Assembly (NCBI GenBank): GCA_003990745.1
Contig: RBNI01001294.1
Coordinates: 1 to 23,217 of the forward strand
Origin: Jimgerdemannia flammicorona
Lineage: Eukaryota; Mucoromycota; Endogonomycetes; Endogonales; Endogonaceae
Reading direction: 5' to 3'
Length of the DNA stretch: 23,217 bases
The stretch's first letter is position 1. Every line of letters starts with the position of its first letter. Below the pieces are notes generated by a model, which saw only the letters and a program-made list of their open reading frames with translations, had not been told where the DNA came from and did no database searches. The position numbers and the translations under genes are program-made. Of this stretch, positions 3,998 through 23,217 are shown in pieces.

Positions 3998-4457
3998 GTA
4001 GCAGATGCTTACTTTTGAAAGTACATCGGATTTCTGTATCTTGAATACTTGATCTTCTCTAACTCCTCGGAGTCCTTGGGATATAGAGGTGGATGAGTTT
4101 GAAGTATATCTGCCTACAGGCTTTCTAGTTCCTTTACTATCTTTTTGCTTTTGAACTATTTCGATCTGAGGTTTATTCACTCTGAGAGACTGGGTTATTT
4201 ATATAAGTTTTGCTAACTATAAGGTGGCTAAGTAATAGCTCATTTTGCAAGTATTGAATCTTTTAACATCTTCTAAGATTTCACTAATTGCAAAGATTCT
4301 AACATCTCCTAAATCCTTACAAATGTTAAAGTTTCTGCACTTTGCAGAATGTGGCTGCTATTTATGAGGCTAAGCTATATTGGGAATCAGATTTAGGTAC
4401 CGTGATCAAATGTCTAATTCCTCTGTTTCATGTTACTAATTCAGATCAACTGTCACA
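3998..4457 (-). repeat. gypsy-1 3' LTR
   Basis: This 460-bp sequence matches 10232-10691 at about 91% identity by eye. On the - strand it starts TGTGACAGTTGATC, directly after a polypurine tract, and ends CATCTGCTAC. The end is not the usual CA, which may reflect RIP or a family trait. It contains the same TATA motif as the other copy (about 4197-4206). Confidence 0.92.
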
Positions 4458-4960: not shown

Positions 4961-6159
4961 AATACTTCTTGAGTTGGTTTCGGTAGATGGTAGTGGGGAT
5001 GATTGTGTCTGAGAGTTTTCGTAGCCAAAAGGCAGTTCCTTTTATATCTTGTACAAGGTAAGGTCCTTCCCACTTGGGCTCCAGTTTTCGTGACCATGAG
5101 GCTTCTACTATATTCTAATATACCAGGACCTTGTCTCCTATCTTGATAATCTCTAGGAGTTTGTGGGTTTTTTCGGCATTCTTCTGTTGTAGTGCCTGTG
5201 CCTTCATTATGTAATCCTCAGCCTTCTTCCTGATTTGGTATAGTCTCTGTATTTCTCCATCTATATGTTTCTATACAGCATTCCCATTGGACGATAGGGT
5301 TTCTTGAGAACTTTCTTCTCTGAACAGCATTTCTCGAGGGGTAAAGTGGGTACTTTGTGATCTGATATCTTGGAGAGCAGATAATGCTTTGGCAGATAGT
5401 GATCTCAGTTTTCATAGTTATCACAGATCTTGGCGATAACATTCTTGAGGGTCTTGTTGGTCCTTTCTGCTTGTCCGTTTCCTTGAGGGTGATAGGCTGT
5501 AGTCTAAATGTGCTGGATCTTGTACTTCTTGTAGAGAACCTCAAAGAACTGGTTCACAAATTCTGTTCCTCTATCTATAGTTACTTGCATTGGGGTCTTG
5601 AACTGGCAGATGATTTCTTTGTGGAAGAAATCGGCAATTAACTGTACATTGGCTTTCTTGAGGGGTCCTGCTTCTATCCACTTCATAAAAAGGTCTACAA
5701 TGACAATGATATATTGGTTGCCAGTCAGGGTCAAGGGTAGAGGGCTGATTACATCCATTGCTATGTGGGCAAATGGTACTGGTTCTATATGTGATGATCC
5801 TGGGGCTTGGTTTTGTTGGTCTTATTTCTGTTTCTGGCATTTGTCACAGGTTTTGACAAATTGTCTGATATCTTTCTCCATTCCTGGCCACCATATCATT
5901 CTTCTTACCTTGTCGTATATATTCATTCCTCCTAGATGGCCAAGTTCATATACTGATTTCATTGCTTGCTCCTTCTTGTATTCTGGTATAACTAGTAGTT
6001 TTCCTTTCTTCAGTATTTGTCCATCAGTTTTGAATTGTTTCCATGTTCTGTTAATAATTATTTGCGTTCATTCTTCCAGATATTGGGGCATCTTTCACTG
6101 TCCCAGATATGTGATGATTCCATAATAGAGCTCCTTATTCATAATTGATTTATTGGTTG
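4941..6159 (-). pseudogene. gypsy-1 integrase
   Basis: Integrase inserts element cDNA into the genome. On the - strand the zinc domain is readable at about 5985-5838: VYELGHLGG, then IWWPGM, then TCDKCQKQ. The first zinc His is Tyr (CAT to TAT), a C-to-T loss. The catalytic core follows with AMDVISPLPL (first Asp, about 5755), TIDRGTEF (second Asp, about 5580) and a Glu in GNGQAERTNKT (about 5470). The C-terminal GPY module reads KWEGPYLVQDIKG and IYRNQLKKYY, ending at TAA 4943-4941. The frame shifts near 5390 and again between RNase H and the zinc domain, and there are several stops. No chromodomain is visible. Confidence 0.88.
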
Positions 6160-6559
6160 GAGGTATTTTGAGGTATCTGTGAGAGAGTATCTGCATTGGA
6201 ATTTGTTCTTCCAGGGTAGTATATAATGGTTACATCATAGGCTTGTAACTTCATTATCTATCTAGCATAGATTCCTTTGGGTTGTCCAGTTGTCAGTAGC
6301 CAGGTGAGAGCTGAGTAGTCCATCTGAATGGTGAAGTGTCTTCCAGCCAGATAGTAGTGGAACTTTTCTACAGCCCAGATGACTGTGAGACATTCCAACT
6401 TGTAGGATTCATATTCTTTTTCAGCTCCTCAGGTTCCTCTGCTTAGGTATGCAATGACATACTCTTTTTTGTCTTCCTTTTAAGCTAGAACCACTCCTAG
6501 TCCTTGTGCACTTATATCTGTCTGAAGGATAAACTCTTGGGTCCAATTGGGTCATCTGA
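6160..6559 (-). pseudogene. gypsy-1 RNase H
   Basis: RNase H degrades the RNA strand of the RNA/DNA hybrid. Reading on the - strand in the same frame as the second RT part, the acidic residues are in FILQTDISAQGLG (Asp), YKLECLTVIWAVEKF (Glu), FTIQMDYSALTWL (Asp) and NSNADTLS (Asp). The His expected after the third Asp is Tyr here (CAC/CAT to TAC/TAT). Four or more in-frame stops, for example in VLA*KED and SRGT*GAE, are of the RIP type. Confidence 0.88.
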
Positions 6560-7642
6560 GGATGGGTGCCTGGGTCAGTCTGACCTTGAGTTCATCAAAT
6601 GCTTTTTGTTGTCTACCAGTCCAGTTGAATTTAGTGTCCTTCTTGTTGAGTTCATAGATTAGACCTACAATATTGGAGAATCCTCTGATAAATCTACAAT
6701 AGTAGAAGGCAAGTCCCATGAAGGCTTGGGCTTCTGTAACAGTGGTGGGCCTTGAGTATGCCACTACTACTTGTATCCTGAGGGGGTCCATGTGTGTTCC
6801 ATCTCGATTGATAATATGGCCAAGGTAGGAGATCTCGATTTCTGCAAATTTGCATTTCTTGGGCTTGATATACAGGCCATGCTTTCTCATCTTTCCATTA
6901 TCTGCCATATGTGCTGCAGGTGTTCCTCAGGTGTCTTGCTGTAGATGATTACATCATCAACATAGACCATCATCCATCTTCCTATGTCTTAGTAGAAGAT
7001 TTTGTCAATCATTTGCTGAAAGCTTGCTGGTGTATTGTACATCCCAAATGGTATTCATAAGTAGATGTAGGTTCCATCTGGGGTGATGAAGGCTGACTTT
7101 TCACTTGACATCTCTGTGAGTCCAATTTGGTGAAATCCCAAGTATAAGTCCAAGGTGCTGTAGTACTGTACTTCATCTTCCAGTGTTATAAGGATGTCAC
7201 TGATGAGGGGCAGTGGTTGGCGATCCTTCTTGGTAACTGTATTGAGCTTTCTGTAGTCAACACAGAGTCTTGGGGTGAATTCTCCAGATTTGCTTTCTTT
7301 TTTCGGAGCTAGTACAACTGGTAAAGACCAGGGGCTGCTGGCTTCTTTGATAATACCAGCTTCTTCCATCTACTTGATTTCTTCTCTGAGCTATTCTCGG
7401 TAGGCTGGTGGGACAGGTCTTGCCTTCTGGTAAATTGGTTCGGTATCTCCAGTATCTACCTCATGATAGTAGTGTGGGGTCTTTCCCTTGATATTCTTGA
7501 AATCCATGGCAAGGACATTCTTGAATTTGTGGAGTATTTTCTTGAGTTCCTCCTTGAGTGGAAATTCATTTCCAATGGTATAACTGTGCTTGCTTGTAAT
7601 TTCCTCCTTCTTATGCTCCAGTTCAGTGATCTTAGTACTCAT
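6560..7642 (-). pseudogene. gypsy-1 reverse transcriptase
   Basis: Synthesises element cDNA in the cytoplasmic particle. On the - strand, the part before RT (7642-7391) has the usual lead-in, with TGDTEPIYQKARPVPPAYRE. RT proper shows SSPWSLPVVLAPKKE, RLCVDYRKLNTVTKKD, PLPLISDI, YYSTLDLYLGFHQI (first catalytic Asp in TLDL) and the YVDD box at 6964-6953. After that come LYIKPKKCKF and SYLGHIINRDG. Stops at about 7391 and 7055 and a one-base frame change at about 6893 break it. All three catalytic Asp residues are still encoded. Confidence 0.93.
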
Positions 7643-7644
7643 GA

Positions 7645-8029
7645 ATACTCCTCTTTCTGTAGATCCAAATCCTTTTCATTTCCTCCAAATTCTTGACTTC
7701 TATGATCCTTGGTTATAGGATTGGAAAGATCAACATCTGTGCCAATCGGTCCTTCTTCTTGACTGGAAATGGGATTGTAGGATTGTGATTCCTAGCAATG
7801 AGCAGGATTTCTCCAGTATAGTCAGAATCGATGACTCCTCCTTCAATCATAATTTCGCTTCTGGCCAGGCTGCTTCTTGTTTTGAGGATCCCGACATGAT
7901 CCTTTGGGATAGTTATCTCCAGTCCAGTTGTGAGTAGGGTGGTTGTTTGGGGTTCTAGTACAGCTTCTTCTACTGTGGCAATATCCATTCTAGCTACATT
8001 TTCCGACTTATATTCTGGCAAGACTGCAT
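7645..8029 (-). pseudogene. dUTPase domain inside gypsy-1 pol
   Basis: A trimeric-type dUTPase (dUTP to dUMP plus pyrophosphate), which would lower uracil incorporation during cDNA synthesis. On the - strand all five family motifs can be read. Motif 1 is ENVARMDIAT (consensus AGxDL; Gly replaced by Arg, a G-to-A change). Motif 2 is RSSLA. Motif 3 is GGVIDSDYTGEI with its catalytic Asp. Motif 4 is KKKDRLAQMLIF. Motif 5 is KGFGSTERG (7675-7650; consensus GGFGSTG, last Gly replaced by Glu). Motifs 1-4 share a frame with protease; motif 5 shares a frame with RT, so a small deletion lies near 7675. The domain sits between protease and RT. Lentiviruses carry theirs between RNase H and integrase; here the position differs. 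Confidence 0.9.
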
Positions 8030-8408
8030 CAGGGTGGGTCCCTCAGATCTTGACCTTAATTTCTTCTTCATCATCACTATCCTCTAGGAGGGCTGGTGGT
8101 TCATCATCTTCCTCCTCCTTCTCTTCTCTGATCTGTTTTTTGAGAGCTTTCTGTCTTCTTTCCTGGTGGATTTTCTTGATTCTGATGGTGCACTGATAGC
8201 AATCATTGACATGCTCCATACAGTGCATATTGATCTCATGAGAACAGACTCCTTATGGTATATAGCCTTCTGCAATCTTCTTATACCATTCTTTTTTGCT
8301 CATCTGTCCAACTTTCTTCTTCAGAGTAGTCACCATATAAGCTTCCTCTTGCTTGCTCTCTTCTTCCTCCATGTCAGGCAAGACTCCTTTGTTGACATTG
8401 ATGGAAAT
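8030..8408 (-). pseudogene. Acidic/basic linker with Cys-His cluster in gypsy-1 pol
   Basis: In frame with protease and dUTPase on the - strand. The first part is Glu-rich and Lys-rich (DMEEEESKQEEAY, LKKKVGQMSKKEWYKKIAEG). A Cys/His cluster follows, CSHEINMHCMEHVNDCYQC, at about 8250-8190, then a helical charged stretch and a run of Glu/Asp (REEKEEEDDEPPALLEDSDD). Two stops are of the CAA-to-TAA kind. The Cys/His spacing is not a zinc-finger class I can name. It may be a structural linker of the pol polyprotein. Confidence 0.6.
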
Positions 8409-8774
8409 TTATATCTTCTGTCCCTGGTAGGTGATTTGCATCTTCTGGACATTGAGGTTGATTACTGCCCTGGCTTTGTGAAGCCATTGATTACCGATGA
8501 GGATGTCATAGTTAGTGGCATTGGTTACAATTACATCTACTGGGATGGTTGCTCCTCTAATCTTGATGGGGACTTCTTGGATCTTTCCCAGAGGGGTGGC
8601 TCTTGTGCCATCTGCTGTGACAAAAACCAACTTGATTGCTTCTTCAACTTCCCAGCCTAGGCAGTCTGCTGCTTTCTTGCTGAGGAGACATCCTCCTGCT
8701 CCAGTATCAATGATGGCTTCAAAGACCCTATCTTTGATTTGGCATGTTGCATAGGCAGAGGTTTTGCAATTGTC
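8409..8774 (-). pseudogene. gypsy-1 aspartic protease
   Basis: Retropepsin-like protease that cuts the Gag-Pol polyprotein. On the - strand FEAIIDTGAGGCLLSKKA carries the catalytic triad DTGA (Asp codon 8708-8706). A flap-like region with VFVTADGTRATPLGKI follows, and the C-terminal signature YDILIGNQWLHKARAVINL is the retropepsin hydrophobic-Gly motif. No stop interrupts about 8774-8409, so this domain is intact in sequence. The gag frame is left and the pol frame entered near 8765. I cannot tell a programmed frameshift from a later indel. Confidence 0.9.
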
Positions 8775-10111
8775 TTCACTTTCTTCTCCTGAGTTCTCTT
8801 GAAGTTATTGGCCTCGGTTATCTTCCATCCTTGCTCCTTGGTTGTTTCGGCAAGTCCAAACCTCATTTGTTGTCTGAATGGTGGGATTTCTATGAGCTGA
8901 CCAAAGGTTGCATTGACCTTTTGTTGGCTAAGGTCCTTGAAGATATCATACTTGAAAGTCTTGGTCTTGTGAAGTTTCTTTTCTTTTTCTCCTTTGCTAA
9001 CTGGGGTAGTTCCTCAGATAATATCTTGAACTGCTTGCTCCAGCTCCATATCTTGGTCCATCTCTTTGGCTTGGCTTTTGGTGACCGTTTCTATCTACTT
9101 TTCTACTGAGTTCTTCTTGGGTCTTCCTGGTGGTCTCTTGTAGGGTTCCTTGTGAACATCCTTCTTGGTAGTCTGAGCAGGATAGGTCTCCCATTCTTCT
9201 TTATCGGAATCTCCAATTTCCTCAAAGGTAATTATATTGGCCTGCTCTGTGTTTCATATAGCATTGCTTGGTTGAGCCTTGCACTTAGTTTCACTCATGC
9301 ATTCATAGGAGTAGTGACCTTCTTCTCTACAGATATAGTAGGTACCTTTCTTCTTGTCCGAGGTAGCAGCAAACTTCTGAACTGGGCAGCAGTTTCTTCC
9401 TTGGATTTCTTTTACCACATCTCCCAGGTGGGTGGTCATTTCAGCAAACCTCTTGGCAAGTTCCTCCATAGGGTCACTGCTCTTTTGCTGCTCTGTAGTT
9501 TTTGGCTGAGGTGTGTTTCAATAGATCATTGTAGTAGGGATCACACTGGTTGCCTTGGATGTTTTGATTCTGACTTCTGTGACTCTTTCCATTGTATGGT
9601 CTTATGGGTGTCTGACTGTCCAATATCGCTGAGCTTAGGTGACCTTCTGTAGCAGATCCAAGACTACTGGTAATAAACAAATGGCCATGGCTATCTCTGG
9701 GTGAACTCCTTTCATGAAGGTTGCTTTGGCTACTTGATCTCGGATAGCAGCAGCATAATCCACGAGGATTATCTGATATCAAATTCTGATATAGAATGTG
9801 TTTGGATCCTCACTCATTCCTTGGCATATTATATTGAGCTGATCCTTCAGAGCTTGCTTGATCTCATCTATATAATATGTATTTTGGAGCCAGGTCTTCT
9901 GTGCTGTCAGTATAGCATCAGCATCATTTCCTGCATGGGTTGCAGCTGTAAATGCTGCTCTGGCAGGACCTTGTAGGCTGAAGAGCATGAGGGCTACTTG
10001 CTGTGCTGCTGTCAGGGTCCTTACAGTAGCATACTGCTCGAAATCATCAATGAAGGTAATGATTGATTCATCTGAGGTATACCCATGGAATACTGGTGGT
10101 TTCATATCCAT
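8775..10111 (-). pseudogene. gypsy-1 gag with zinc knuckle and AT-hook-like motif
   Basis: Capsid/nucleocapsid polyprotein. The chosen start is the ATG at 10111 (context ACAAAATGG); upstream in the same frame there is a TGA. The capsid part reads MDMKPPVFHGYTSDE and TFIDDFEQYATVR, then continues in the same frame as DYAAAIRDQVAKATFMKGV through stops at 9779 and later. The nucleocapsid knuckle is at 9340-9299: the pattern C-x2-C-x4-H-x4-C has lost its first Cys (TGC to TAC), the rest being CREEGHYSYEC. Farther on KRPPGRPKKN (about 9140-9110) resembles an AT-hook core. The frame continues to about 8770 with a basic tail. At least seven in-frame stops. Confidence 0.85.
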
Positions 10112-10209
10112 TTTGTCTGGGTATTGTGGCTTGGTTTGTGTAGTTGCTCAGGTAGTGGTGGTTGTTTGTTGTTCAGCTTGAAAGTGAGGGATTCATCTTG
10201 AATCACCAG

Positions 10210-10223
10210 CCAATGGGCACCAA
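10210..10223 (-). other. gypsy-1 primer-binding-site candidate
   Basis: Eight bases inside the 5' LTR the - strand reads TTGGTGCCCATTGG. The leading TGG is what a tRNA 3' CCA end would pair with. I did not match it to a particular tRNA. The Tf1-type self-priming alternative fails, as I see no complement in the expected transcript start. Confidence 0.55.
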
Positions 10224-10231
10224 GTTATATC

Positions 10232-10691
10232 ATAGCAGATGCTTACTCTTAAAAGTATATCAGATTTCTGTATCTTGAATACTTGATCTTCTCTGACTCC
10301 TTGGAGTCCTTGGGATGCAGGAGTGGATGAGTTCAAAGTGTGTCTGCCCACGGGCTTACTAGTTCCTTTGCTATCTCTTTGCTTTTGAACTATTTTGATC
10401 TGAGGTTTATTCACTCTGAGATACTGGGTTATTTATATAAGTTTTGCTAACTATAAGATGGCTAAGTAATGGCTTATTTCACAAGTGTTGAATCTTTTAA
10501 CATCTGCTAAGATTTCGCTAATTACAAAGATTCTAACATCTCCTAAATCCTTGCAAATGTTAAAGTTTCTATACTTTGCAGAATGTAGCTGCTATTTATG
10601 AGGCTAAGCTATATTGGAAATCAGATTCAGGTACTGTGATCAAATGTCTAATTCCCCTGTTTTATGTTACTAATTTGGATCAACTATCACA
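10232..10691 (-). repeat. gypsy-1 5' LTR
   Basis: 460 bp, partner of 3998-4457. It holds the promoter: on the - strand TTATATAAAT (10440-10431) is a TATA box, and an AATAAA lies about 25 bp downstream of it. It begins TGTGATAG where the other copy has TGTGACAG, a C-to-T difference. Confidence 0.92.
10431..10440 (-). promoter_or_regulatory. TATA box in gypsy-1 5' LTR
   Basis: TTATATAAAT on the - strand, identical in both LTRs, placed about 200 bp upstream of the LTR end. Expected element promoter. Confidence 0.55.
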
Positions 10692-10696
10692 ATAAA
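10692..10696. repeat. Target-site duplication (right) of gypsy-1
   Basis: ATAAA, same as 3993-3997. The restored pre-insertion site is AT-rich, showing that the host DNA was already mutated at the time. Confidence 0.7.
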
Positions 10697-10779
10697 TATA
10701 TACTATCTAAAATAATAAACAATACCCCTCTTCTCTCTACTCTATATTTATAACATATTTGATATAATATCAATCTCTA

Positions 10780-12700
10780 CTACTACTGAAGAATGAGTCA
10801 TTACTAATATTAGATAGAAAGAAAAGTAATAATCTCAAGACTTACTAATTATTCAGTATTAAAAGAATTCTAACCAGAAGCCAGTATAGTACAGAACTCT
10901 CAACTTGTACTAACAGACTTATCACTAGAAGATCTGACTCAACTGGATCAATCAGATATTATAGAAGAATCTGCCAAAAGTTTTAACAAACTTATATAAG
11001 AATTAGAAAATTTTCAGGTTCTCTCAGAAGCTCTATCAGTCTCTTCTATCAAATCACTACTTAGACTAGCAACAATAGCCTCAAAAGTATTAGAAATAAT
11101 CTCTTCAAGGATATCCAGATCTACTGTATTTTACTTAAGACTAACAATCTCATCTTTAAGAATACTCAGACCTACTGAACCTTACTCAAGATTAATAACC
11201 CCATCTTCAAGGATATTCAGATCTACTATATCTTACTCAAGACTAATAATCCTATCTTCAGAATATCCAAGCATCCCAAGATCTAAAAAAATCTCAGAAA
11301 GTAAATTAGAATTAGAATTAGAATTATGATAAAATGACCACTCTAATACTAATCTTTGCAGAATACCCAGAAGAAGACCCAAGAGAATTCTCTAATATGA
11401 TTGAAGGAATAGCTACCCTAAATAATCTCTCTACCCAGAGAAAAATCACTATCTTCAAGACTCAACTAAGAGAACTAGTTAAGTGAATATTTAACTAAGT
11501 AGCAAATAATATATATATAGACCTTAAAGCAGCCATCTATATAGTAGTTTTCTGAGAAGAAGAATATAAAGTCATGACCTACTAACTTATTAAAAATATA
11601 GAAAATGAAACCCATCATAAGATTTAAGAATTGATCATAGAGATGAAGATCAATCTTAGAGAATTACCCAGAGTATTTATCATTAGAATTTTGAAAAGAA
11701 AATATATAGCTAGATTCAATACTCTCAATAAGACATTATAGATCTAATGATCTTTATAAATGAGATTTCTCTAAATATTGCCCAGTATATCAATATTCTA
11801 ACTGTCAGAAGACCTGAAGAATAAGTAAGAATTTTTTGATATCAGACAAAAAATAATTAAAAGTAATCATAATAAGAAAGATAACAAAGAAGATCTTTCG
11901 GTCAAAACTCTATAAGGACTCCTTTAAGAATGTGGAAAACCAGAAGTAGGAAGACTAGTTAAGAAGTAAAAGAAAGAGAGAAATGAAATTCAGAATCTTA
12001 ACTCTAAGTTTGACTAATTGGTTAACTAAATAAAAAAACTTAATATATATAAATCAGAGCTATCTATAAGATAACAAAGGTTATATATTATAAAGAAATC
12101 AAGACTATCTATTTGGAGATAACAGGAGCTACTAGTAATAAGAAAAAAGAAGATATATAGTCTAAGATAAAGCCTAAGTCTAATACTTCTACTATTGATA
12201 TTTTAGATACTATATTATAGAATATGATAATAGAAAAGTGACCAAAGAGACACAGAACTACTAAATAAAAGAATATAATCCAGTATAAGAAAACTGAAGC
12301 TTAACATATCAAAAACTTTAAAGAAGAAAGCAATAGTAATAATTATTATAATCTAGACCTATATCTAACTAAGATTATCTCTAGAAAAACAGTCTACTTA
12401 GCTAAAAAGAAAAAGAGACCAGTAGGAAGGTCATTCAGAAATACTAGCAAAATAACTATTTTGAAAGAATATAAAGAAGTTGAAGAGAAGCAGATTGAAA
12501 TATCTCCTAGGTCTCCCTTACTTTTCATATCTGAAAAAAATAGACTACTACTTAAAGATAAAGAAATGTGACATAAAGAACAAGAGCCTATTGTCTCAAA
12601 GTCTAAGAAGAAGTACATTCCAAGGATTATACCTAGAGACATCTATAATGAAGTCTAGAAAAAGATTCTAGAAGTTAAGATAGAAGTCTCTCTCTTATTA
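10780..12700 (+). pseudogene. gypsy-2 gag remnant
   Basis: Leader and N-terminal part (10780-11330) are Ser/Leu-rich with a tandem repeat. From the ATG at 11334 the frame reads IFAEYPEEDPREFSNMIEG, then ATLNNLSTQRKITIFKTQL, then a stop: a plausible capsid-like sequence. Farther on the sequence is Lys- and Glu-rich and broken by many stops. I could not find a zinc knuckle. Assignment to gag rests mainly on its place before protease. Confidence 0.6.
11102..11268 (+). repeat. Tandem repeat, 51-bp unit, three copies plus a partial
   Basis: Units at 11102-11152, 11153-11203 and 11204-11254 with a partial copy to 11268, each beginning TCTTCAAGGATAT or close to it. The unit is 17 codons long, so it would have repeated in frame within the N-terminal part of gag. 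Differences between units are mostly transitions. Confidence 0.85.
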
Positions 12701-12854
12701 TTTCTAAACTGATAGCTGCTGAGATTTGAAATAAACTATTGAGAACTACTAGGTCCAGTACTGGCTAAGTTTTAATCTCATAATAAGAAATAGTACCAAC
12801 TACTATCCAGACTATAGAGAGATATATCAGCATATATCTACATAGAGATATTGG

Positions 12855-13180
12855 AGGACAGAATGCAAAAATCCTCATTGACATATGTATATAGGAGCAG
12901 CTATCTGTATTCTTATTAAATAATTTCTAGATACTCTCCAGTAATCCATTGATGGACTATCTAATCTCAATATTATAGTAGCAGATAGAGCTAGACCTTA
13001 ATCTCTTGAAGAAGTATGAAACATCACTATCTTACTTGAACATATTCAGTTCTCTATTCTAAAAGCTATTATTACCAAAGCTATTACCTATGACATAATT
13101 CTTGGTATCAACTGGATAAAGAAAATGAATGCAATTATTGATATTAGTTAATAGATACTCAAATTTGACTATACAGAAAA
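12855..13180 (+). pseudogene. gypsy-2 aspartic protease remnant
   Basis: At about 12865-12900 the frame reads AKILIDICI then a stop, matching the retropepsin active-site string ILIDTGA with Thr and Gly codons lost by transitions. The C-terminal signature is clear at about 13087-13160: ITYDIILGINWIKKMNAIID, matching YDxILGxxWLxxxxxxID. Stops break the frame between. Confidence 0.75.
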
Positions 13181-14509
13181 AAGTATTCAATTAAGATAAC
13201 TAGTTATGAATAATTAAAGAAGAAGAAGAAGATTACTATTCAGAAAGAGTATATTAGCAATAAAGAATATACTATAGAGAAAGAGGAATCTGAAGATAGA
13301 AATGATCTCAGACTTAACTCATAAATTGGCCAAAAAACAATAAATAGATAAAAGATATTATCTTTATTATAATTAGAGTCATTACAGAATAAGTCAGTGG
13401 ATGTTTCACTTATCCCAAAAGATACAAATACTCCAAAAATTTCTCAGAGATCATTGGAACAAGAAATTCACCTAGTATAGCTTACTCTAAGTATAGAAAA
13501 AGAAAGAAGAAATATAACTACTCTCTAAAGACACCTATAACCAAAGCTACAAAAGTATAAGTAATCTAGTATCAAGAAGTATCTAATGAAAAAACCCCTG
13601 AAAAGAAGTCTCTAAGTAGGAGAAACTCTCAGAAGTTATCCCCTGAGATGACTACTACAATATACTACTAAAATATAATGATATCTGAAATACTGAAGAA
13701 GAATTCAGTATAGTCACCATTGTCTCAAAATAAGAACAAATAAGGAAATAGCCTTTTGGCAAAGAAGATACTAGCATCAGATGATCTTTTACTCTCTCTG
13801 AGACAATTGCTATTAGTACTATTTACTAGATCAGTAAAAAAGACAGAGATACTATAGATCAGGATCCCTAATTATAATTAGACAACTATCTTTCAAGAAA
13901 TCACTATAATGCTGAGAAGATGAGCTAATGAATAAGATAACTTCATCTAAATAGAAATACAGTCCTTAGCTACCCTTCTTCCAACTTATAATAAAGATGA
14001 ATACTGATTTCTAAAATAGTAAGAAGTTAATAACTGAGAACTCTATTTTCAAGTAATGGGATATTGCAATCATAAAAAACACTCAGACAGTTAAGACTAC
14101 ATATATTAGAAACCTTACCTCAGCTAAGATATTATAGTATCCATGCTCAAGAGAGGAGATAACAGAGCTAAGATCTAAAGAAAATAGGCCAGAAAACTAA
14201 AAAAGAAGGTTCTTAAGATCTATGACTAAGAAATATCATCCTAGCTCTCATCTGATATAAAATCTATTAAGAATATATAGAAGATATATACTATTAACTT
14301 CATAGAAGTCCTAGAATCTATAAGAAAAAGAGGAATCAATTACCTCTAAGACCTTTCTACTGGAATCAGATAGCTATATCTCAACCTTAGAGTATAGAGG
14401 CTTATATATATCTACTGAAGCTTTAGCTCAAGAATAATCCAAACTTAGTGAAGATATTATCTGATATATCTTACTATATATATCCCAAGGCCAAACTCTC
14501 TATAAAAGC
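13181..14509 (+). other. gypsy-2 spacer between protease and dUTPase
   Basis: About 1.3 kb, Lys/Glu/Ser-rich when read in the pol direction and full of stops. No known domain was recognised. The matching linker in gypsy-1 is only about 380 bp, so this family has either a longer linker or an additional, now unreadable, domain. Confidence 0.5.
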
Positions 14510-14880
14510 TTATCAAGAAGATATAGAATATGATTTTTACAATTTTAGAAATAAATCTATTAAATTTAGAAGAATAATAGTACTTAGTATAGAACTAGCT
14601 CTATAGCTATTCAAAGAAACTTATATCTAACTGACCTCAAGGTCTGGACTTACTAAATAAGAAATAACTATAGAAACATGAATAATAGACCCAGGATATA
14701 TAGGGAAAATCAGAGTCATCCTGAACATAGTAGTATAGAATAGACCTAAATCTCAAAGAGCAAAAGATTGAATAAGTAATCTTCATTAAGGTCAAGACTC
14801 TCCAACTATAAGAAGTCCTCAAACTAACTCAAGGTATAAGAAAAACAGAAGAATTTAGAAGCTTAGATAAGATAGAGGTA
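14510..14880 (+). pseudogene. dUTPase domain inside gypsy-2 pol
   Basis: Five trimeric-dUTPase motifs in order on the + strand. Motif 1 is EYDFYNF (14526-14546; consensus AGxDLxA). Then IELAL, a stop, and LFKETYI lead to motif 2 RSGLT (14640-14654). Motif 3 is IIDPGYIGKIRV (14682-14717; consensus GVIDxDYxGEIxV, catalytic Asp kept). Motif 4 is KEQKIE, a stop, then VIFIKV (14755-14790; consensus KxGDRIAQxxF). Motif 5 is RKTEEFRSLD (14839-14868; consensus RGxGGFGSTG, Gly codons turned to Glu/Arg codons). Motifs 1-3 share one frame, and motifs 4-5 lie one base over. As in gypsy-1 it lies between protease and RT. Dead copy. Confidence 0.82.
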
Positions 14881-15439
14881 TATCTTCTCTAGATCAACCA
14901 CTTTAAAGAGAATTCTTCTCAGTAAGTATACTACTAATTAGTCAAGCTATAAGAATCAAATTCTAGAACTAGAAGAGCATACTATATTTGATATCTTTAT
15001 ATTACTTGATTCTAGAAATCTCTTCTTTGAAACAAATGAGAATCTCAAGAACCTGAATATAGAAGAATTTATATTTTCTGACAAAATGAACTCTATATAC
15101 TCTTTAGTAATAAACTAAGGCTTGGAAAGCCTCATTCTACTAAAAGAAATTATTATAGACTATCTAGTACCCTATCTTAATTAGATATACAGAGAAGTTT
15201 ATAAACTAAATCTATCAGAAAATAGTAAAAGATCTCAGAAGAAAAAAAAGACCTTTTTATAATCCAGAAGAAAGTAAAGAAATAGAATTAATCTCTCAAC
15301 AATAGTAGTAACTTGCAAAACTCCTTTATAAATATTAGATCTTTATTATATATATATTATAGTAACCAACTATATAACATATTATACTATTACAGTATAA
15401 ATATAAAAAATGCAATACTTATCTTATGGAAGTCTTATA
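14881..15439 (+). other. gypsy-2 spacer between dUTPase and RT
   Basis: About 560 bp, very AT-rich and with many stops. It should hold the RT lead-in region, but no motif is clear enough to place. Nothing else seen. Confidence 0.45.
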
Positions 15440-16240
15440 TATAGAATACTCTATTATCTAAAAATATTCAAGAAGGAATATATTTAGAAACTCTTAGACA
15501 ATAAAGTTATCTAATCCTCTACCAGCTCTTGGACCAGTCTTATACTCATTATATCTAAGAAAAGAAGATAGAGGCTCTGTATAGATTATAGAAAGCTCAA
15601 CTTAGTAATAGAAAAAGATACTTACTCTATGCTCAGAATTGATAATCTCCTAGATAAATTATAAGATACCACATACTTCAGTAGTATGGATCTTTTTGCA
15701 AAATTCTATAAGATCTCTATGGACTTTAAAAACATCTAGAAAACAGTCTTTCTTACTCTAGAAAAATTGTTTAAATATCTCCAAATACTCTTTAGACTCT
15801 ATAATATACTCCTCCAACTTCTCAGAGAATGGCAAACTCAGTCTGTAGCCTACTAATCTACTACTGCCTAATTATATATATAGACAATACTAATATCTAT
15901 TCAGCAAATTTCAAAGAATATCAGTATTATCTAGAAGAATTCTTTCAGCTCACTTATAAAAACCACCTGAGACTTAATGCTAAGAAGTACTACTTTGAAA
16001 AACAGAAACTTGAATTTCTTAGATTTATAGTTTTTAAAGAAGAAACTCATACAGATCCAAAGAAAACTGAGATAATCAACAACAGGCCAGTACCTAAGAC
16101 TTTAAAGAAAATATTATCATTACTGATATTAGTATTATACTATGGGAGATTTATCAAGAATATTATCTAAATTACTACTCTAATTCAAAATCTTCTCAAG
16201 AAAAAAGTGCCCTATAAATAGATAGAATTATAAGAACTAG
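15440..16240 (+). pseudogene. gypsy-2 reverse transcriptase remnant
   Basis: Readable blocks in order: SSWTSLILIISKK, RLCIDYRKLNLVIEKDTYS (15566-15625), TTYFSSMDLFAKFYKISMD (first catalytic Asp in MDL) and KTVFLTLEKLFKYL. The catalytic box at 15877-15888 is YIDN, where the second Asp of YIDD has become Asn (GAT to AAT). Then LRLNAKKYYFEKQKLEFLRF and ETHTDPKKTEII follow. The stretch 15829-16170 happens to be free of stops but starts at a non-native ATG in a shadow frame. Inactive by active-site loss as well as by stops. Confidence 0.88.
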
Positions 16241-16620
16241 TCTTTAGAGAAATTAAGCACTATATAACTGCAGTATTAGTTCTTATGAACTCAATCTATA
16301 GAAGCCATTCATCTTGTATACAGATATCTCTAAAGATAATCTTAAAGCAGTCTTAGCCTAAGAAAGATCTGATCAATAGTACTATATAATAATTTATATA
16401 AGTTGAGCTATTAATAGTCACTATGTTCAAATACTATCTTATTGAAGAAAGGTTTACTCTGATAATGATCATACTGCTCTCCAATAGCTATTCTACTATA
16501 GGAAATCTACTGGAATTCTTATCAGCTAGATCCTTATTCTATAGAATTACAAAATCACTATTATCTATAAAGTAAGAAAAGCTTAAAATGATATTAATAG
16601 ACTTTTTTACTAATTTTAAT
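16241..16620 (+). pseudogene. gypsy-2 RNase H remnant
   Basis: Follows RT directly. FILYTDISKDNLKAVLA (about 16310-16355) carries the first catalytic Asp in the usual LxTDAS setting. NDHTALQ at about 16465-16485 corresponds to TDHxAL, then GILIS, a stop, and ILILQNYKITIIYK matches the final strand region before the last Asp, readable as NDINRLF. Many stops. Confidence 0.75.
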
Positions 16621-16739
16621 AAACTAGAAAGAGTGTATCAAGAAACCACACTCTAAAGAAAGTTTTCATAATCATTAAAATATAAGAAGATATTATCTGA
16701 TAAGAATACCAGAAGGCCCACCAAGAACAGACAAATATA

Positions 16740-17650
16740 AAAAAAAAAAATTATAAATAATATACAAATACTGGCTCTATCTTAGAACAAAAGTCTAAGA
16801 CATACTCCAAAAATGTGATACCTTCTAGAAGTATTAAAGACAGAAGAACTATCAAGTACTACTATAACTAATCACACTATAGTCTATATCTTTCAAAGAT
16901 AGAAAGTAGATATTATTAGATTCTTACTAGTTATACTAAGAAGAAACAAATATATTATAGTATTTATAGAATATCTGACCAAATGACCAAAAGCTTTCTT
17001 CTTTAGAAATTGCCAATATCTTGATCATTATTGGCCTCTTTTATGGCCTGACACTCAGATATAGACCTTTAGAAAACTTATCTCTAACTAAGGAACAGAA
17101 TCTACCAATAATATAATTATAAGTTATATTCTAATTTACAAGATCCATCACATCATGTTATTCTCAAATTAATAGTATAATAGAATAAATAAACCAGAAT
17201 ATTAAGAAATAACTTGTCTAAGTCAATTTTATTAACTATAATATCTGCTTATCTGAGATCCTATTGGAAATTTAAAATACTCCTACTATCTCTACTAAAT
17301 AAAAGCTATTCAAGATAATGTTTATTAAGAAAACTAGAACTACTGATCATAAGAACCTCAGAGACCTCCTTATAAAGACAGAACAATTATATAATTAAGT
17401 CTAAAATTAGATAATTAAGGCTCAAAAAAGATAAAAAAAGTACTATAACCAGAAGTAGAAAGGTTTGAAAATTAAGATTAAAGATCAAGTACTAGTTTGA
17501 AGAAGTATAATTAAAACAATTCTTGTGCTAAACTAGAGTCCAAATAAGGAGAACCTTATCTTATATATAACATCAGAGAAATATATATCTATATAAGCAA
17601 TATAGAAGAATATATCCCGAGAACTTTAGTATATATCAATTATCTTAAGA
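16740..17650 (+). pseudogene. gypsy-2 integrase remnant
   Basis: The catalytic core is readable at about 16905-16995 as KVDIIRFLLVILRRNKYIIV (first Asp) and FIEYLTK, a stop, then PKAFFF, matching DYLTKWPEA. About 17075-17110 reads LISN, a stop, then GTESTNN, equivalent to SDxGTEFxx with Asp turned to Asn. A GPY-like remnant lies near 17540-17562 as SK*GEPYLIY, fitting KWEGPYLIY with the Trp and Gly codons mutated. The N-terminal zinc domain is not clearly readable. Confidence 0.75.
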
Positions 17651-18214
17651 TATATCTATCTCTTACACAATAATCCAGAGGATTGATTAGTATCTCTAGA
17701 TGCTTGTCCTAAGTTCTCTTTAAGTCCTATTAATTCCCCTATCTTAGTTTTAGAAAAATTATTAATAACTACTTCAAACTAATCTAAATTCATTAAGAGA
17801 ACCTTACTATAGCCCAGTAACTTCTAAAAATCTACTAGCTATAGGTATACTATACTATTAGAGAACAACTACAAGCTCTCTCAACCCTGGAGTATACCTA
17901 TATCAGATATACTACAGATCTTATCTGAAGAAATAATATTGCAGTAGATAGACTCTATACTATCTATAAGTAAAATATAGAAGCAATAACTCAGACCCAA
18001 TTTTGTCTTGAAGATATATATCTAAAAAATGATCCCTACTACTTACCAGAGTATTATCTATTACATTGAGATACTATTCTCTAAAGAAGAAAAGAAGCTC
18101 TTAGAATGAAGTAGCTTTAAAACTAATGAAGATGATAAAACAGTAGTTGATACAAAAGATACTTACTTATATTGAAATAATAACTAAAGGACAGTCTGAG
18201 ATAGACTATTCTTT
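17651..18214 (+). other. gypsy-2 region after integrase
   Basis: About 560 bp with some less AT-rich, Pro/Ser-rich reading (DACPKFSLSPINSPILVLEK near 17695) but no recognisable domain. gypsy-1 has an extra ORF at the same relative place; I could not show that the two are related. Otherwise nothing seen. Confidence 0.35.
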
Positions 18215-18223
18215 AATGGGGGC
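18215..18223 (+). other. gypsy-2 polypurine tract candidate
   Basis: AATGGGGGC stands out in AT-rich DNA directly before TGATATAATAAG, which can be the LTR start. G runs not opposite a CpA context would survive RIP, so survival here is plausible. Confidence 0.4.
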
Positions 18224-19125
18224 TGATATAATAAGCTAGTAGAGAAATATACTCAGTTACTATCTAAATTAGTTATTATAATTTAACTATATATTATATC
18301 AGATATATTAGATAACCAGAACTGCTCTATGGTATCAACTTGTATAAATAACCCAGATAGCTAAATAAAAGTACAAAGTATTTCTAACTGATATACTATA
18401 TTAGAATTTGAAATTAGTATTTCTAGCTAGTATGTTATAATAGAATTTATATTTATATCTCTAATAGAAACAGCTAAATTTTATCAGAAATAGTAATTTA
18501 GAGTTAGTTATATAGTAATCAGATAGTAATCACATCTATATAAAATATCTCTGAGATTTAAGTAAATAAACCTCAGTCTGAAATTGAACCTAAAAAGTAA
18601 AAGACAAGTCTGTCTACTATATTTTGAGAGATATATCTATCAAAAGTCACTTAATTCAGGAAAAATTACAATACTTAGGAGAAATATCTGCTCTAAAGCC
18701 ACTTTTAGGAGATTGTGAGCTTAATATCTAATATATACTCTAGTCTACTTTTTGATATAAAGAAGTCTATAATACTTTTAGTCTACTTGCCAGATAAGCC
18801 AGAAGAGAAATCTATTATATTTTGATATACTTATCAGACTAAGTCTGAAGAACTTGAAAAATCTATTAATTTAGAAAAAAATCTATATTAACTAAAAAAT
18901 CTGCTGAATATAGCATATTATATCTGATTTTTACCTAATTAGAAAATTGCTAAAATTATCTATATTATATAAAATAGAGAACTTATATCAATTTCTGAGA
19001 GAAACTATTGAATATTTTATTGCCTTTAATAAAGTAACTGAAGACTTAAGCCAATTTACATAGCAGTCACAACTCTGTAATTTATCTCTATTTATCTGAT
19101 ATATTATAATATATATTTTAGTAAT
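18224..19125 (+). repeat. gypsy-2 3' LTR, heavily mutated
   Basis: Matches 19421-20160 over most of its length, with several indels. Shared landmarks: CTTGTATAAATAACC at 18339, TATAAAATAT followed by GTAAATAAACCTC near 18540-18575, GAAGAACTTGAA near 18848, and AAAGTAACTGAAGACTTAAG near 19032. Relative to the other copy its C and G bases are largely replaced by T and A. Ends are approximate: an alternative start is TGGTATCAAC at 18330, and the 3' end dissolves in AT-rich sequence. It contains a TATA-like box and AATAAA as expected for an LTR. Confidence 0.75.
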
Positions 19126-19420: not shown

Positions 19421-20160
19421 TGATATTATGATGAGCAAATACTATATTATAGCCACATAATATATAAAGAATACTTAGCATAGTTACCCTATATAGTTAC
19501 TCATATGTGCCACAATTTGTATAAATAACCAGATGTATTAAATTCGGATATTGATTTCATTCTAGCTGAAATGCTTATCCTAGCTAGACACTTATCCTAG
19601 ATGGAACACCTATTCTACAAGAGAATAAGTGGTCATACTTTCTCTAAATTAGTCTTATTGAACATTCTATAATTACTCAGATAGCAATCACACTTGTATA
19701 AAATATCCCAGTGATTCAAGTGAATAAACCTCTGTCTGAAAAGTCAAAGAAAAGAAAAGCCAATTGTCTGGCACACTTAGGAGAAATGCCTGCCAATGAG
19801 CTACTGCTAAGAAAATGTGAGCTTTATTCCTTTTCCACTCCAGCCCACTTTCTGATGCAAAGAAGTCTGCCGATTTTGGTCCACTTACCATATTAAGCCT
19901 GAAGAACTTGAATTATCCATCACATTGTGGTCCACTTGTCAGATGAAGCCTGAAGAACTTTGAGATACCCGCCACTTTGAAATTCGCCATGTTGCGCCAA
20001 ATCCACGCCTAATAAGGAAATCACCAAAATCGTCCGCATCGCGCGAAATCAGAAGAACTGAACATTTTGTTACTTTTTAACAAAGTAACTGAGGGCTTAA
20101 GCGAATCTACATAGCTGCCCCAACCTTGTAATTTGCCTCTATTGAGCCTGCACGTTACTA
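19421..20160 (+). repeat. Second LTR copy of the gypsy-2 family (solo LTR or element edge), little mutated
   Basis: Homologous to 18224-19125 in the same orientation, but with normal base composition from about 19540 on and many CpG sites kept (for example 19970-20045). Landmarks: TTGTATAAATAACC, CTTGTATAAAATATC, GTGAATAAACCTCTGTCTG, CCTGAAGAACTTG (occurring twice, near 19898 and 19950) and AAAGTAACTGAGGGCTTAAG. No internal element sequence follows it, so it is either a solo LTR or the edge of a lost copy. I found no convincing target duplication. Start could instead be TGTGCCACAA at 19506. Confidence 0.7.
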
Positions 20161-20341
20161 TATTGGATGCATCTCCCATGGTTGCAGTGAGCCCAATGCG
20201 CGCTTTCGAAAATCATCACATCAAAAAATAAAAACGAGCAAACCATTTAAGTCATGCATCCGAATAATAAAGATGAGTTAAATGGTTATCCATACAAAAG
20301 AAACGGAAGTCGATATCACTACAAGGCTTTTTATCTATTGC
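20161..20341 (-). other. 3' flank/UTR of the PARP-type gene
   Basis: About 180 bp between the LTR copy and the stop codon of the gene at 20342. No AATAAA hexamer is seen on the - strand, but T-rich and A-rich blocks are present that could act in 3' end formation. No other feature. Confidence 0.4.
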
Positions 20342-21420
20342 TCATGCTTTGTAAACAAGAAGATACGCAGGGTAACATGCAGCGTTCTCGTAGACGACAA
20401 CTTCATCGTATTTGATACTTCCCCTGCCTGGCTCCCCGATAACAGCATTGTATCCGTCAGGGGGACTAGTCAAGGTGACAAGATTAGTCATTGGCTTCGT
20501 CACCTTGCCGACCACAACTTTACATAGGAACATTGTCTTATACCGCGCGCCACCGTAGGGGAACCCATCGCCGCAATAATCATCCGACTTGGATGACGTC
20601 GACGAGAAGTAAATCCCGATCCCGTACCTCTCCAACGTGTGGCGGGTACCCGAAAACGATTTCTTGAAGGAGGTGCGAATGATGCCGCAGACGGAGCAGT
20701 TACTCTCGTTACACAGGGTGTTCTGACTATTGGTGGTGCCGATGGCGCACTTGGCTAGGGTGCCATGGAACCGGCGCTGTTCGTTGCCAACCTCCATGGT
20801 GCGCGTGCCACCTGGAAAAGATCTCCCTTTGAAGGGACCATAGCAACATTCGACAGTAGCCTTGTACTCCTCGTAGCGTTTCAGGATGCTGGCCTCGGGG
20901 TGGATCTTGAAGATTCGTTCGATCTGCGGTAGCGGCTTCGAGTGCATCCACTTGTTGGTGAACTGTTCAACGATGCCCTTGTATTTGTCAGTGTGTGGCA
21001 TGAGGCTCAACGTTGATACCGAGTTCGGGTCTGCGATGGTGCAGTGAGGAACAATGATGGAGTGAGCCGGACGCCTATCTGCAATAGAACGTTGGGAAAG
21101 GGTGTCATCTATGCTTACTGTGTTGCGGATGTACCCAGCCAGCCCTCAGCCGACAATTCTTCCCACACCATGGCGAGGCAACTTTGGTTGCTGGGTCGAT
21201 CCAAACTTTATTTCTCTGTGGAGGTGAAATTGTTTCGTCAGTATTGAGCTTTCCGGGTTTCCAACGGCATCCAATACAGATAACACATACGTACCCTACA
21301 GACGCTACATAGAGGCGAGAAGCCGTTTTTGCACCTTTTTGAACAGAACTGCGACCGGACTCCGTTGCGATCCACCCAGACATCGGCAGTCTTGCACCCC
21401 AGACATTTCGGCGAAGGCAT
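20342..21420 (-). CDS. PARP-type ADP-ribosyltransferase with N-terminal Cys modules (three exons)
   Basis: Predicted protein of about 319 residues that would transfer ADP-ribose from NAD+ to a target. Exons on the - strand: 21420-21295, 21215-21119, 21078-20342. Intron 1 (79 nt) has GTACGT, TACTGAC (21243-21237) and CAG. Intron 2 (40 nt) has GTAAGC and CAG; an alternative acceptor ending at 21031 is also in frame and gives 303 residues. Introns are needed because both exon frames otherwise hit stops. Residues 6-30 are a C-x2-C-x16-C-x3-C module; residues 38-63, joined across intron 1, form a second with x17. The catalytic domain (about 105-319) has RRFHGT (His179), CNESNCSVCGIIRTSF, RYGIGIYFSSTSSKSDDY (Tyr231) and IKYDEVVVY (Glu300), the complete H-Y-E triad. 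Fungal proteins of this layout are known to me as PARP-domain proteins; substrate unknown. The start ATG has context ACAATGCC. Confidence 0.85.
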
Positions 21421-22163: not shown

Positions 22164-22432
22164 GTATATAGTCGGGGGACTCGTTTCGCGGTGACATCCC
22201 AAGTAATCTTGCTGCATCAAACAGGTATTTCCCCATCCCATTGTTTGTGTTTGGCGGTGCCGCACAGTGGTTTGGTCATGTGAAGGGATAAATAAATCGT
22301 CGGAATCGTTTTCGGCAGATGACTCATTCCGCAGCTTGACGCACCACAATCCACAATCTATTTGTCAAATACCAAAATCCCAATCCAGGAGGGTGCCTCT
22401 TTACCTCAAGTCGCCAAAAAAAAAAAAAAAAA
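22164..22432 (+). promoter_or_regulatory. Upstream region of the Cys-module gene
   Basis: About 270 bp upstream of the ATG at 22433, without another gene. GGGATAAATAAATC near 22284 is a weak TATA-like candidate. An A18 run (22416-22433) reaches into the start codon, which is unusual. The frame is open upstream to a TGA at 22337-22339 but has no earlier ATG. Confidence 0.4.
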
Positions 22433-23217
22433 ATGCAGACCCGCTCAAATAATCTATGCATCGCCTGCCATCAGCAGGACCGCCATGTCGACGGCAAGGG
22501 AATCGTCTCCTCATATTGCAGTAAGAAATGCCGTGACTCTTGGACCATCTCGGCCACGGGATCTAACCAATACACCGGCCCAACCAACGGATCCAACTCT
22601 CACTCAAACCTCTGCGCTCAATGCCACATTAATGCGCGATGGATCGATAGCGCGGGAAACCAGACCCCATTCTGCTCTCGAGCTTGCAAGGCCACTGCCG
22701 CCAGCTCGGGAACGCCGACGACAATATCCGCACCGCCATGGACCGGGTCGACCCACGGTCCCAACCAGAACACCAATCTCTGTGCCCAATGCCAGTTCAA
22801 TCCGCGCTGGACGGACCCTGCGGGAATCCAGACGCCATTCTGTTCGAAATCGTGCAAGGCCGCGGCGGCGATGCAACCGCCCTCATCAGCCGGACCCAAC
22901 ACACAGCCGTCGACGTACTATCTGCCGTCGAAGAATCTTCCACCGTCGACAAACTTCCCGCCGTCGATGAACTTTTCTTCGCCACCGACCCCCCAAGGCC
23001 ACAACCAAGGCAATCTCTGCACGCAATGCGGGGTGGACCCATGCTGGATTAGTCCCGCTGGGATCCAATCGCCCTTCTGCTCCATCGCGTGCCGAAACGC
23101 CGCCGGGTCGCAGCCGCCCACGCCCACGACAGGATCGATCAACACCGGGTTAGGCATTGTGAGCGGGAGCCGAGGCGGGGGCCGGGGCGGGGGCGGGGGC
23201 GGGGGCGGGAGCGGGGG
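22433..23217 (+). CDS. Protein with four C-x2-C-x16-C-x3-C modules and Gly-rich tract (partial, runs off the window)
   Basis: A single frame stays open from the ATG at 22433 to the window edge: 261 codons, no stop, no intron needed so far. Four modules of identical spacing are seen: Cys at residues 9/12/29/33, 61/64/81/85, 117/120/137/141 and 196/199/216/220. Modules 2-4 share the core LCxQCxxxxxW and PFCSxxC. The first is more divergent (LCIAC and YCSKKC). Linkers are Ser/Thr/Pro/Asn-rich, including repeats of the type PPSxNF at about residues 164-182. From about residue 245 the chain is Gly-rich. The Cys pattern is the same as in the N-terminus of the divergent PARP-type gene, so a PARP domain may follow beyond the edge; that part is inference. 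The Cys quartets suggest zinc binding. Confidence 0.75.
   Translation, partial: MQTRSNNLCIACHQQDRHVDGKGIVSSYCSKKCRDSWTISATGSNQYTGPTNGSNSHSNLCAQCHINARWIDSAGNQTPFCSRACKATAASSGTPTTISAPPWTGSTHGPNQNTNLCAQCQFNPRWTDPAGIQTPFCSKSCKAAAAMQPPSSAGPNTQPSTYYLPSKNLPPSTNFPPSMNFSSPPTPQGHNQGNLCTQCGVDPCWISPAGIQSPFCSIACRNAAGSQPPTPTTGSINTGLGIVSGSRGGGRGGGGGGGGSG
23172..23217 (+). repeat. G-rich (GGGGGC)n run, potential G-quadruplex
   Basis: Repeated GGGGGC units at the window edge encode a Gly-rich stretch in the frame of the Cys-module gene. Several consecutive G3+ runs could form a quadruplex, and the repeat number may be unstable or misassembled. Confidence 0.7.

What the first reader, a model, noticed from the sequence alone, without database searches (positions are those of the whole stretch)
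14510..14880. A second, diverged Ty3/gypsy family in the same window also has dUTPase between protease and RT
Seen: under heavy transition mutation, motif 1 EYDFYNF, motif 2 RSGLT, motif 3 IIDPGYIGKI, motif 4 and a decayed motif 5 lie in order between protease (about 12855-13180) and RT (from about 15440). Two families of very different age and sequence with the same domain at the same pol position argue for an old dUTPase-bearing lineage of fungal Ty3/gypsy elements rather than a chance capture.
Basis: partly seen in the sequence, partly recalled or inferred. Interest (0 to 1): 0.88.

Follow-up and report, generated by a model that had tools for sequence, protein, structure and literature searches.

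The report
Decayed fungal retrotransposon carrying a dUTPase
An old, broken jumping gene in a soil fungus still shows a nucleotide-cleaning enzyme (dUTPase) between its protease and its copying enzyme, and it probably belongs to the same old dUTPase-carrying family of elements as its younger neighbour; elements of this general kind were already known in fungi.

Summary
Window 14478-14783 (+) matches Pfam dUTPase above its cut-off with stops read as X; motifs 4-5 follow at 14761-14880 in another frame. Protease lies upstream, reverse transcriptase downstream. All 20 copies examined (the window's own included) show the domain. The host is almost certainly Jimgerdemannia flammicorona (Mucoromycota, Endogonales): a named protein 99% identical to a window ORF sits on a contig of the window's length.

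In a protease+RT tree the window's two families (A, minus strand; B, this one) fall in a 25-row clade, support 100/98, in which every row carries dUTPase. dUTPase trees neither contradict nor establish one acquisition, and AU tests do not exclude B joining another clade.

Two points were missed. The genome has at least two more dUTPase-bearing families (C, D) with dUTPase before the protease, in another RT clade, so dUTPase entered or moved more than once. Families A and D share a Cys/His-rich linker around which protease and dUTPase have swapped sides.

dUTPase between PR and RT in fungal Ty3/gypsy elements was already published. This is a new member with a better-resolved lineage.

The parts
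14478..14783 (+). family B dUTPase, motifs 1-3 (EYDFYNF, RSGLT, IIDPGYIGKI), frame 3, 6 stops in 102 codons
   Evidence: profile 39.8 bits; PF00692 29.0 bits, cut-off 22; shuffles at most 1.9 bits
14761..14880 (+). family B dUTPase, motifs 4-5 in frame 1, so a frame change lies after motif 3
   Evidence: 59-72% identity over 36-39 residues to the same stretch in 7 of 7 chosen copies; only 9.2 bits to the general profile
12891..13184 (+). family B aspartic protease
   Evidence: 46.9 bits to a local profile trained without B; RVP_2 19.1 bits, just under its 20.3 cut-off
15458..16323 (+). family B reverse transcriptase in two overlapping pieces in two frames
   Evidence: 88.7 bits (15458-16081) and 93.0 bits (15793-16323); RVT_1 19.9 and 18.0 bits, under its cut-off of 29.6
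10755..18226 (+). family B internal region as far as it is shared with other copies; no 5' LTR found in the window
   Evidence: most copies start matching at query position 57-62; the LTR query finds no match in the window other than itself, 19775-19960 and 20059-20143
18227..19118 (+). family B 3' LTR, about 890 bases (ends approximate)
   Evidence: several copies begin at query 128-134 and several end at 1009-1019; in contig C3629 the same piece precedes the 5' internal region
19457..20163 (+). second, less mutated LTR-like stretch related to the LTR of family B (solo LTR or remnant)
   Evidence: local alignment to 18291-19112: 511 matches, 91 transitions, 75 transversions
7668..8042 (-). 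family A dUTPase (comparison element)
   Evidence: profile 105.6 bits at 7668-8039; PF00692 72.1 bits
8019..8411 (-). family A Cys/His-rich linker between protease and dUTPase
   Evidence: 198.8 bits with the linker of copy L079; coordinates computed from the residues given
8415..8774 (-). family A aspartic protease
   Evidence: 108.2 bits
6264..7408 (-). family A reverse transcriptase/RNase H in two frames
   Evidence: 241.7 and 204.2 bits
3999..4457 (-). family A LTR, 3' end of the element
   Evidence: 90.8% identical to 10233-10691, K2P 0.10
10233..10691 (-). family A LTR, 5' end of the element

Best explanation
Window 10755-19118 (+) is a dead copy, without a 5' LTR, of a high-copy Ty3/gypsy LTR retrotransposon (family B) of Jimgerdemannia flammicorona. 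Its pol order was protease - long spacer - dUTPase - RT/RNase H. It shares this order, and most likely a common dUTPase-bearing ancestor, with the younger element A lying next to it on the other strand. Likely working, inferred: the dUTPase was made as part of the pol polyprotein, released by the protease and kept in the particle, where it turns dUTP into dUMP and pyrophosphate so that reverse transcription puts little uracil into the cDNA when the cell's own dUTPase is low. Shown here: the domain, its place, its motif residues across copies, copy number and the tree. Not shown: enzyme activity, processing, packaging. The window's own copy cannot make the protein (stops, frame changes).
For: Domain and order. 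Residues in the 11 aligned B rows (window plus 10 of the other 19 copies): motif 2 Ser 11/11, motif 3 Asp 9/11 (Asn in 2), motif 3 Tyr 11/11, motif 4 Gln 8/11, motif 1 Asp 6/11 (Asn in 4, X in 1), motif 5 Phe 8/11 (3 not aligned). DNA search with 14400-15300: 40 matches scored of 968 candidates, the window itself and 39 others at 76-81% identity. Common lineage: RT tree, B + A clade 98/96; PR+RT 100/98; masked 98/94. The search that supplied the relatives used RT/RNase H residues only (530-1003); of its 120 listed hits (3004 passed) 18 carry PF00692, and 16 of those fall in the clade with A. dUTPase motif 2-3 spacing is 16 residues in 7/7 B rows, against 17 in 52 of 61 rows without detected PR or RT. 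Function: retroviral dUTPase review PMC4531489 (passages).
Against: B sits on a very long branch with skewed composition. AU tests do not reject B with the other RT clade (p 0.20, 0.30). In the free dUTPase tree B joined P0039/P0046 and family D, not A, and A's group plus B alone is slightly worse than the free tree (4.6 units, p 0.375). The 16-residue spacing also occurs in P0129-P0131 and P0154 outside the clade. P0039/P0046 carry dUTPase but group with dUTPase-free rows in the PR+RT tree (97/93). B lacks the linker of A (0 of 20 copies). No integrase profile hit was obtained for B in the one stretch and frame scanned.
Confidence: 0.66

Rival explanations
1. Families A and B took up dUTPase separately, at the same pol position by convergence (the PR-RT spacer tolerates inserts).
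For: Independent uptake is the published view for dUTPase-bearing fungal elements (PMC2864245, passages). dUTPase occurs at several pol positions in the 240 public proteins. Some dUTPases of the other RT clade (P0139, P0143) lie among named fungal cellular ones. P0039/P0046 group with dUTPase-free rows by PR+RT. B with three fungal cellular dUTPases is not rejected (p 0.27).
Against: A+B fall in one RT clade with no dUTPase-free row among those sampled. Holding A group, B and P0039/P0046 together raises the dUTPase likelihood. B with the 9 rows without PR or RT p 0.049.
Confidence: 0.21
2. B received its dUTPase (or exchanged it) by recombination with another retroelement lineage, such as that of P0039/P0046 or family D.
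For: Free dUTPase trees join B with P0039/P0046 and D (SH-aLRT 87 and 89; the three together 97/93, B with D 82/46). Family D suggests that modules do move: linker shared with A but another RT clade.
Against: The join shifts when rows are left out: without B, D moves to the side of the cellular rows and P0039/P0046 to the A group; treekit flagged long branches meeting.
Confidence: 0.11
3. The motifs are chance resemblance in AT-rich, repeat-derived sequence.
For: The window copy has stops, a frame change and skewed composition.
Against: 39.8 bits against at most 1.9 in 200 shuffles; 20 of 20 copies read carry the domain, three of them at 61-80 bits to PF00692.
Confidence: 0.01

Closest known systems
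dUTPase-bearing Ty3/gypsy elements of Postia placenta (PosPlaTy3-3, -4, -5), PMC2864245 (12 of 24 passages read)
   Same: Fungal Ty3/gypsy with dUTPase; PosPlaTy3-5 has it between PR and RT, PosPlaTy3-3 at the N-terminus of Pol, which resembles families C and D
   Different: Basidiomycete host; the authors infer independent uptake. Their sequences were not compared here
Tmt1 of Tuber and Phanerochaete chrysosporium elements (Riccioni et al. 2008; Novikova and Blinov 2008; papers not seen, only mentioned or cited)
   Same: dUTPase in fungal LTR retrotransposons
   Different: Dikarya hosts; sequences not available here, so their place relative to the A+B clade is untested
Bdelloid rotifer Juno, Vesta and TelKA elements, PMC5408684 (passages)
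   Same: dUTPase between PR and RT, followed in Juno by an extra Zn knuckle
   Different: Animal hosts, varied ORF3; relationship not tested
Betaretroviruses, PMC4531489 (passages)
   Same: Families C and D have dUTPase between nucleocapsid zinc knuckle and protease, an order like NC-dUTPase-PR (order in betaretroviruses partly recalled)
   Different: Different RT group (recalled, not tested); A and B have the other order

Membership tests
Trimeric dUTPase (PF00692) | Profile match above the curated cut-off | tested here: met
   Window 29.0 bits; copies L019, L011, L021 79.9, 61.3, 64.8 bits; cut-off 22
Trimeric dUTPase (PF00692) | Five motifs in order with catalytic Asp and Tyr of motif 3 | tested here: met
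   In copies with the domain in one frame, stops as X; in the window motifs 4-5 lie in another frame and score weakly alone
Trimeric dUTPase (PF00692) | dUTP hydrolysis, homotrimer | not testable with these tools
   -
Ty3/gypsy LTR retrotransposon | Protease and RT of Ty3/gypsy type in order | tested here: met
   RT tree
Ty3/gypsy LTR retrotransposon | Integrase downstream of RNase H | tested here: inconclusive
   No Pfam hit in window 16741-17300, the one stretch and frame tried; integrase found after RT in family D, L080
Ty3/gypsy LTR retrotransposon | Paired LTRs | tested here: inconclusive
   3' LTR about 18227-19118 defined by copies; no 5' LTR found in the window
PR-DUT-RT lineage that holds family A | RT (and PR) inside the clade | tested here: met
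   98/96, 100/98, 98/94; alternative not rejected by AU
PR-DUT-RT lineage that holds family A | dUTPase of common origin | tested here: inconclusive
   Compatible (p 0.80 with P0039/P0046; p 0.375 without) but weakly resolved
Chromovirus | Chromodomain after integrase | not tested
   17300-18226 was not scanned against Pfam

The most novel reading that the evidence does not exclude
An old Ty3/gypsy lineage has carried dUTPase between PR and RT by descent for a long time (families A and B and 16 public, mostly unnamed pols), and its linker/dUTPase modules have been exchanged with a second lineage in the same genome, giving family D in which protease and dUTPase have changed sides around a shared Cys/His linker; in this host dUTPase would be a near-universal part of Ty3/gypsy elements rather than an occasional passenger.
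Probability: 0.33. Interest if true: 0.55.

Novelty: new member of a known kind. Interest (0 to 1): 0.4.

Why it matters
It turns scattered reports of dUTPase-bearing fungal elements, read so far as separate captures, into a testable case: one RT/PR clade in which every sampled member has dUTPase just upstream of RT, next to a second clade in the same genome where the position differs. A genome with at least four such families in two RT clades suggests that elements of this fungus face a lasting dUTP problem during reverse transcription.

Tried and rejected
Chance motifs: rejected by shuffles and copies. RIP of the Dikarya kind: not adopted. Element A has CpG at 0.14 of expectation but raised CpA (1.29), which looks like loss of methylated CpG; element B has CpG 0.01 and also lowered CpA (0.72) and TpG (0.67), TpA/ApT 1.17. 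In B the C/T differences precede A in 11,211 of 19,823 cases with a constant next base, against 41% A after pyrimidines overall: a bias, not a signature. Dating B by its own LTR pair: not possible in the window, no 5' LTR was found. The AT-rich left flank 3630-3985 as the 5' end of B: not supported; it is another repeat with its own copies. Linker of A in B: none in 20 copies. Count of D linker order was wrong for minus-strand rows (end points instead of midpoints); one search corrects it (D 20/20 DUT-LINK-PR). The AU tests 'D with A clade' and 'all dUTPase-bearing, PR+RT' did not finish. AU results not quoted elsewhere: A group + B + P0039/P0046 + D 0.26 lower, p 0.49; D + C + P0129/P0130 0.30 higher, p 0.506; A group alone 2.5 higher, p 0.551.

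Rows left out: dUTPase trees took one domain per protein and only matches spanning at least 115 profile positions. Rows labelled cell are proteins in which no PR or RT was found; some, such as P0202 with an integrase domain, are element pieces. The first RT tree took 90 of 144 proteins with long enough RT (three in four of the dUTPase-free proteins P0049-P0120 dropped) plus 19 loci and 2 window pieces. The careful RT tree kept 63 of those 111 rows: dropped were 9 RT-DUT proteins, 10 other long or distant proteins (two of them, P0134 and P0196, dUTPase-bearing), both window pieces, L020, the two unassigned loci, and 24 more dUTPase-free rows. The careful dUTPase tree kept 54 of 149 rows. The PR+RT tree had PR for 47 of 63 rows (B: L010 and L011 only).

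Full report
What the window is. The window is contig 1294 of a 134.8 Mb, 7754-contig genome. A PARP-like ORF at 20342-21145 (-) has a public protein named ADP-ribosylation [Jimgerdemannia flammicorona], 99% identical over 92% of the ORF, on a contig of 23217 bases, the window's length; the next named relatives are Endogone and Glomeromycotina proteins. The host is therefore taken as J. flammicorona, Mucoromycota, Endogonales. A review says more than 77% of that genome can be repeats and that Ty3/gypsy dominates in most analysed zygomycete genomes (PMC10386755, three passages).

The observation. Read with X at stops, 14451-14885 (+) gives PF00692 at 29.0 bits, above the cut-off of 22. A local dUTPase profile trained on families A, C, D and public proteins, but not on B, gives 39.8 bits at 14478-14783; the best of 200 shuffles is 1.9 bits. 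Motifs 4-5 lie in another frame at 14761-14880 and match the same stretch of 7 of 7 chosen copies at 59-72% identity over 36-39 residues, though only at 9.2 bits to the general profile. Protease (12891-13184) and RT (15458-16323) flank it.

Copies. A DNA search with 14400-15300 gave 40 matches scored of 968 candidates: the window and 39 others at 76-81% identity. In the 20 best, the window included, the dUTPase domain is found in 20; order PR-DUT-RT in 8, DUT-RT in 8, DUT alone in 3, and one with a neighbouring RT in front. Loci were cut short by design, so missing PR or RT there is not by itself evidence of loss. Over 11 aligned rows, motif 2 Ser is kept in 11, motif 3 Asp in 9, motif 3 Tyr in 11. 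Copies of B are on average 75% identical to each other, those of A 88%, C 94%, D 92.5% around the dUTPase: by divergence B looks the oldest of the four. The LTR pair of element A differs at 9.2% of sites, K2P 0.10, with 39 transitions to 3 transversions.

Other families in the same genome. Of 30 RT loci fetched from the 150 best-scoring RVT_1 matches, 25 carry dUTPase upstream; the other 5 are shorter than the rest, so presumably cut by contig ends. The 25 belong to two further families: C with order NC-DUT-PR-RT and D with NC-DUT-linker-PR-RT (profile order C 8 DUT-PR-RT and 5 DUT-PR of 13, D 20 of 20). This sample is biased to high scores and says nothing about weaker RT families. C and D have Phe in place of the motif 3 Tyr in the 6 rows looked at.

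Shared linker. Between PR and DUT, family A has a Cys/His-rich stretch of about 130 residues. Family D has its homologue between DUT and PR (101 aligned positions, 37% identity, E 3e-21 in a direct two-sequence comparison). The A query finds it in 20 of 20 A and 20 of 20 D copies, none of 20 B and none of 13 C; order PR-LINK-DUT in 20 A, DUT-LINK-PR in 20 D. Among the 240 public proteins then held only P0030, of the A clade, has it clearly. It has no Pfam match above a cut-off (zf-C5HC2 17.8 bits, cut-off 22, for the A linker; none for the D linker).

RT and PR trees. Public relatives came from a search with the RT/RNase H part of an A copy, blind to dUTPase: 18 of the 120 proteins listed, of 3004 that passed, carry PF00692. 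In the careful RT tree of 63 rows, B joins A and 16 of those 18 in a 25-row clade (98/96); P0039/P0046 are next (96/82); C and D sit in a separate 20-row clade (100/100) with proteins of mixed domain order. With protease added the 25-row clade has 100/98, and 98/94 when Ile, Lys, Asn, Tyr, Phe and Met of B are masked; P0039/P0046 then move among dUTPase-free rows (a group of five at 97/93 and 90/93). Against a firm conclusion: moving B to the C/D clade costs only 10.3 (RT) or 8.6 (PR+RT) likelihood units and is not rejected (p 0.20, 0.30), and putting all dUTPase-bearing rows together is not rejected either (7.4 lower, p 0.197). The C/D clade was sampled with a dUTPase-protease query, so nothing can be said of how general dUTPase is there.

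dUTPase trees. 135 columns resolve little. Freely, A groups with P0004 and P0005, C with P0129-P0131, B with P0039/P0046 and D. Holding A group, B and P0039/P0046 together raises the likelihood by 10 (p-AU 0.80); A group with B alone is 4.6 lower (p 0.375). B with the 9 rows without PR or RT costs 35 (p 0.049), B with three named fungal cellular rows costs 13 (p 0.27), D with C and P0129/P0130 costs nothing. Leaving rows out moves D and P0039/P0046, so the B-D join may be long-branch attraction. The spacing from motif 2 to motif 3 is 16 residues in 7/7 B rows; in the A group by pattern in 12 of 17, the other five not caught by the pattern (read by eye from the same output, four of those five are 16 and one 17). 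It is 17 in 52 of 61 rows without PR or RT (16 in 3, not caught in 6), but 16 also in the four DUT-PR-RT rows.

What it does. Retroviral dUTPases matter mainly in non-dividing cells with low cellular dUTPase; their loss raises G-to-A changes (PMC4531489, passages). By analogy the retrotransposon enzyme would keep uracil out of cDNA. This is inference: activity was not tested and the window's copy is dead.

Known or new. dUTPase between PR and RT, at the N-terminus or at the C-terminus of Pol is published for Postia elements, and by citation for Phanerochaete and Tuber (PMC2864245, passages); for bdelloids (PMC5408684, passages); a planarian giant element (PMC6431247, passages); and the ancestor-like metavirus of the PNMA genes (PMC11011659, passages). 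PF00692 is enriched in Entomophthora muscae (PMC11105155, passage). PMC2774666 (passages) likens betaretroviral dUTPase to that of fungal chromoviruses. In nine searches (listings and the passages above) I saw no report for Endogonales; none of those searches asked for the linker or the swapped order by name. Most subscription papers, among them the source that the review cites for the J. flammicorona genome, were not seen.

Noticed in passing
L080, L082 (family D) and window 8019-8411 (family A): Homologous Cys/His-rich linker with protease and dUTPase on opposite sides in the two families; no Pfam family above cut-off.
   Followed up: partly
L004 829-2232, L081 978-3158: Family C: nucleocapsid knuckle - dUTPase - protease in one reading frame (L004), an order like that of betaretroviruses, with Phe for the motif 3 Tyr.
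   Followed up: partly
window about 2197-2560: Very AT-rich remnant of a Ty1/copia reverse transcriptase (RVT_2 26.0 and 21.8 bits, below the 31.6 cut-off) in two frames.
   Followed up: no
window 3998-10696: Element A is bounded by a candidate 5-base duplication ATAAA; weak evidence in such AT-rich DNA (read by eye).
   Followed up: no
window 19457-20163: LTR-like stretch related to the LTR of B but GC-richer (less mutated), next to the gene region.
   Followed up: partly
window 22340-23215: ORF with repeated Cys-x2-Cys ... Cys-x3-Cys units (by eye), no Pfam match above cut-off.
   Followed up: no
P0121-P0124, P0132: Salix proteins with two to four dUTPase domains in tandem; several tremellomycete proteins (such as P0194, P0208) have dUTPase behind coronin-type domains.
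   Followed up: no
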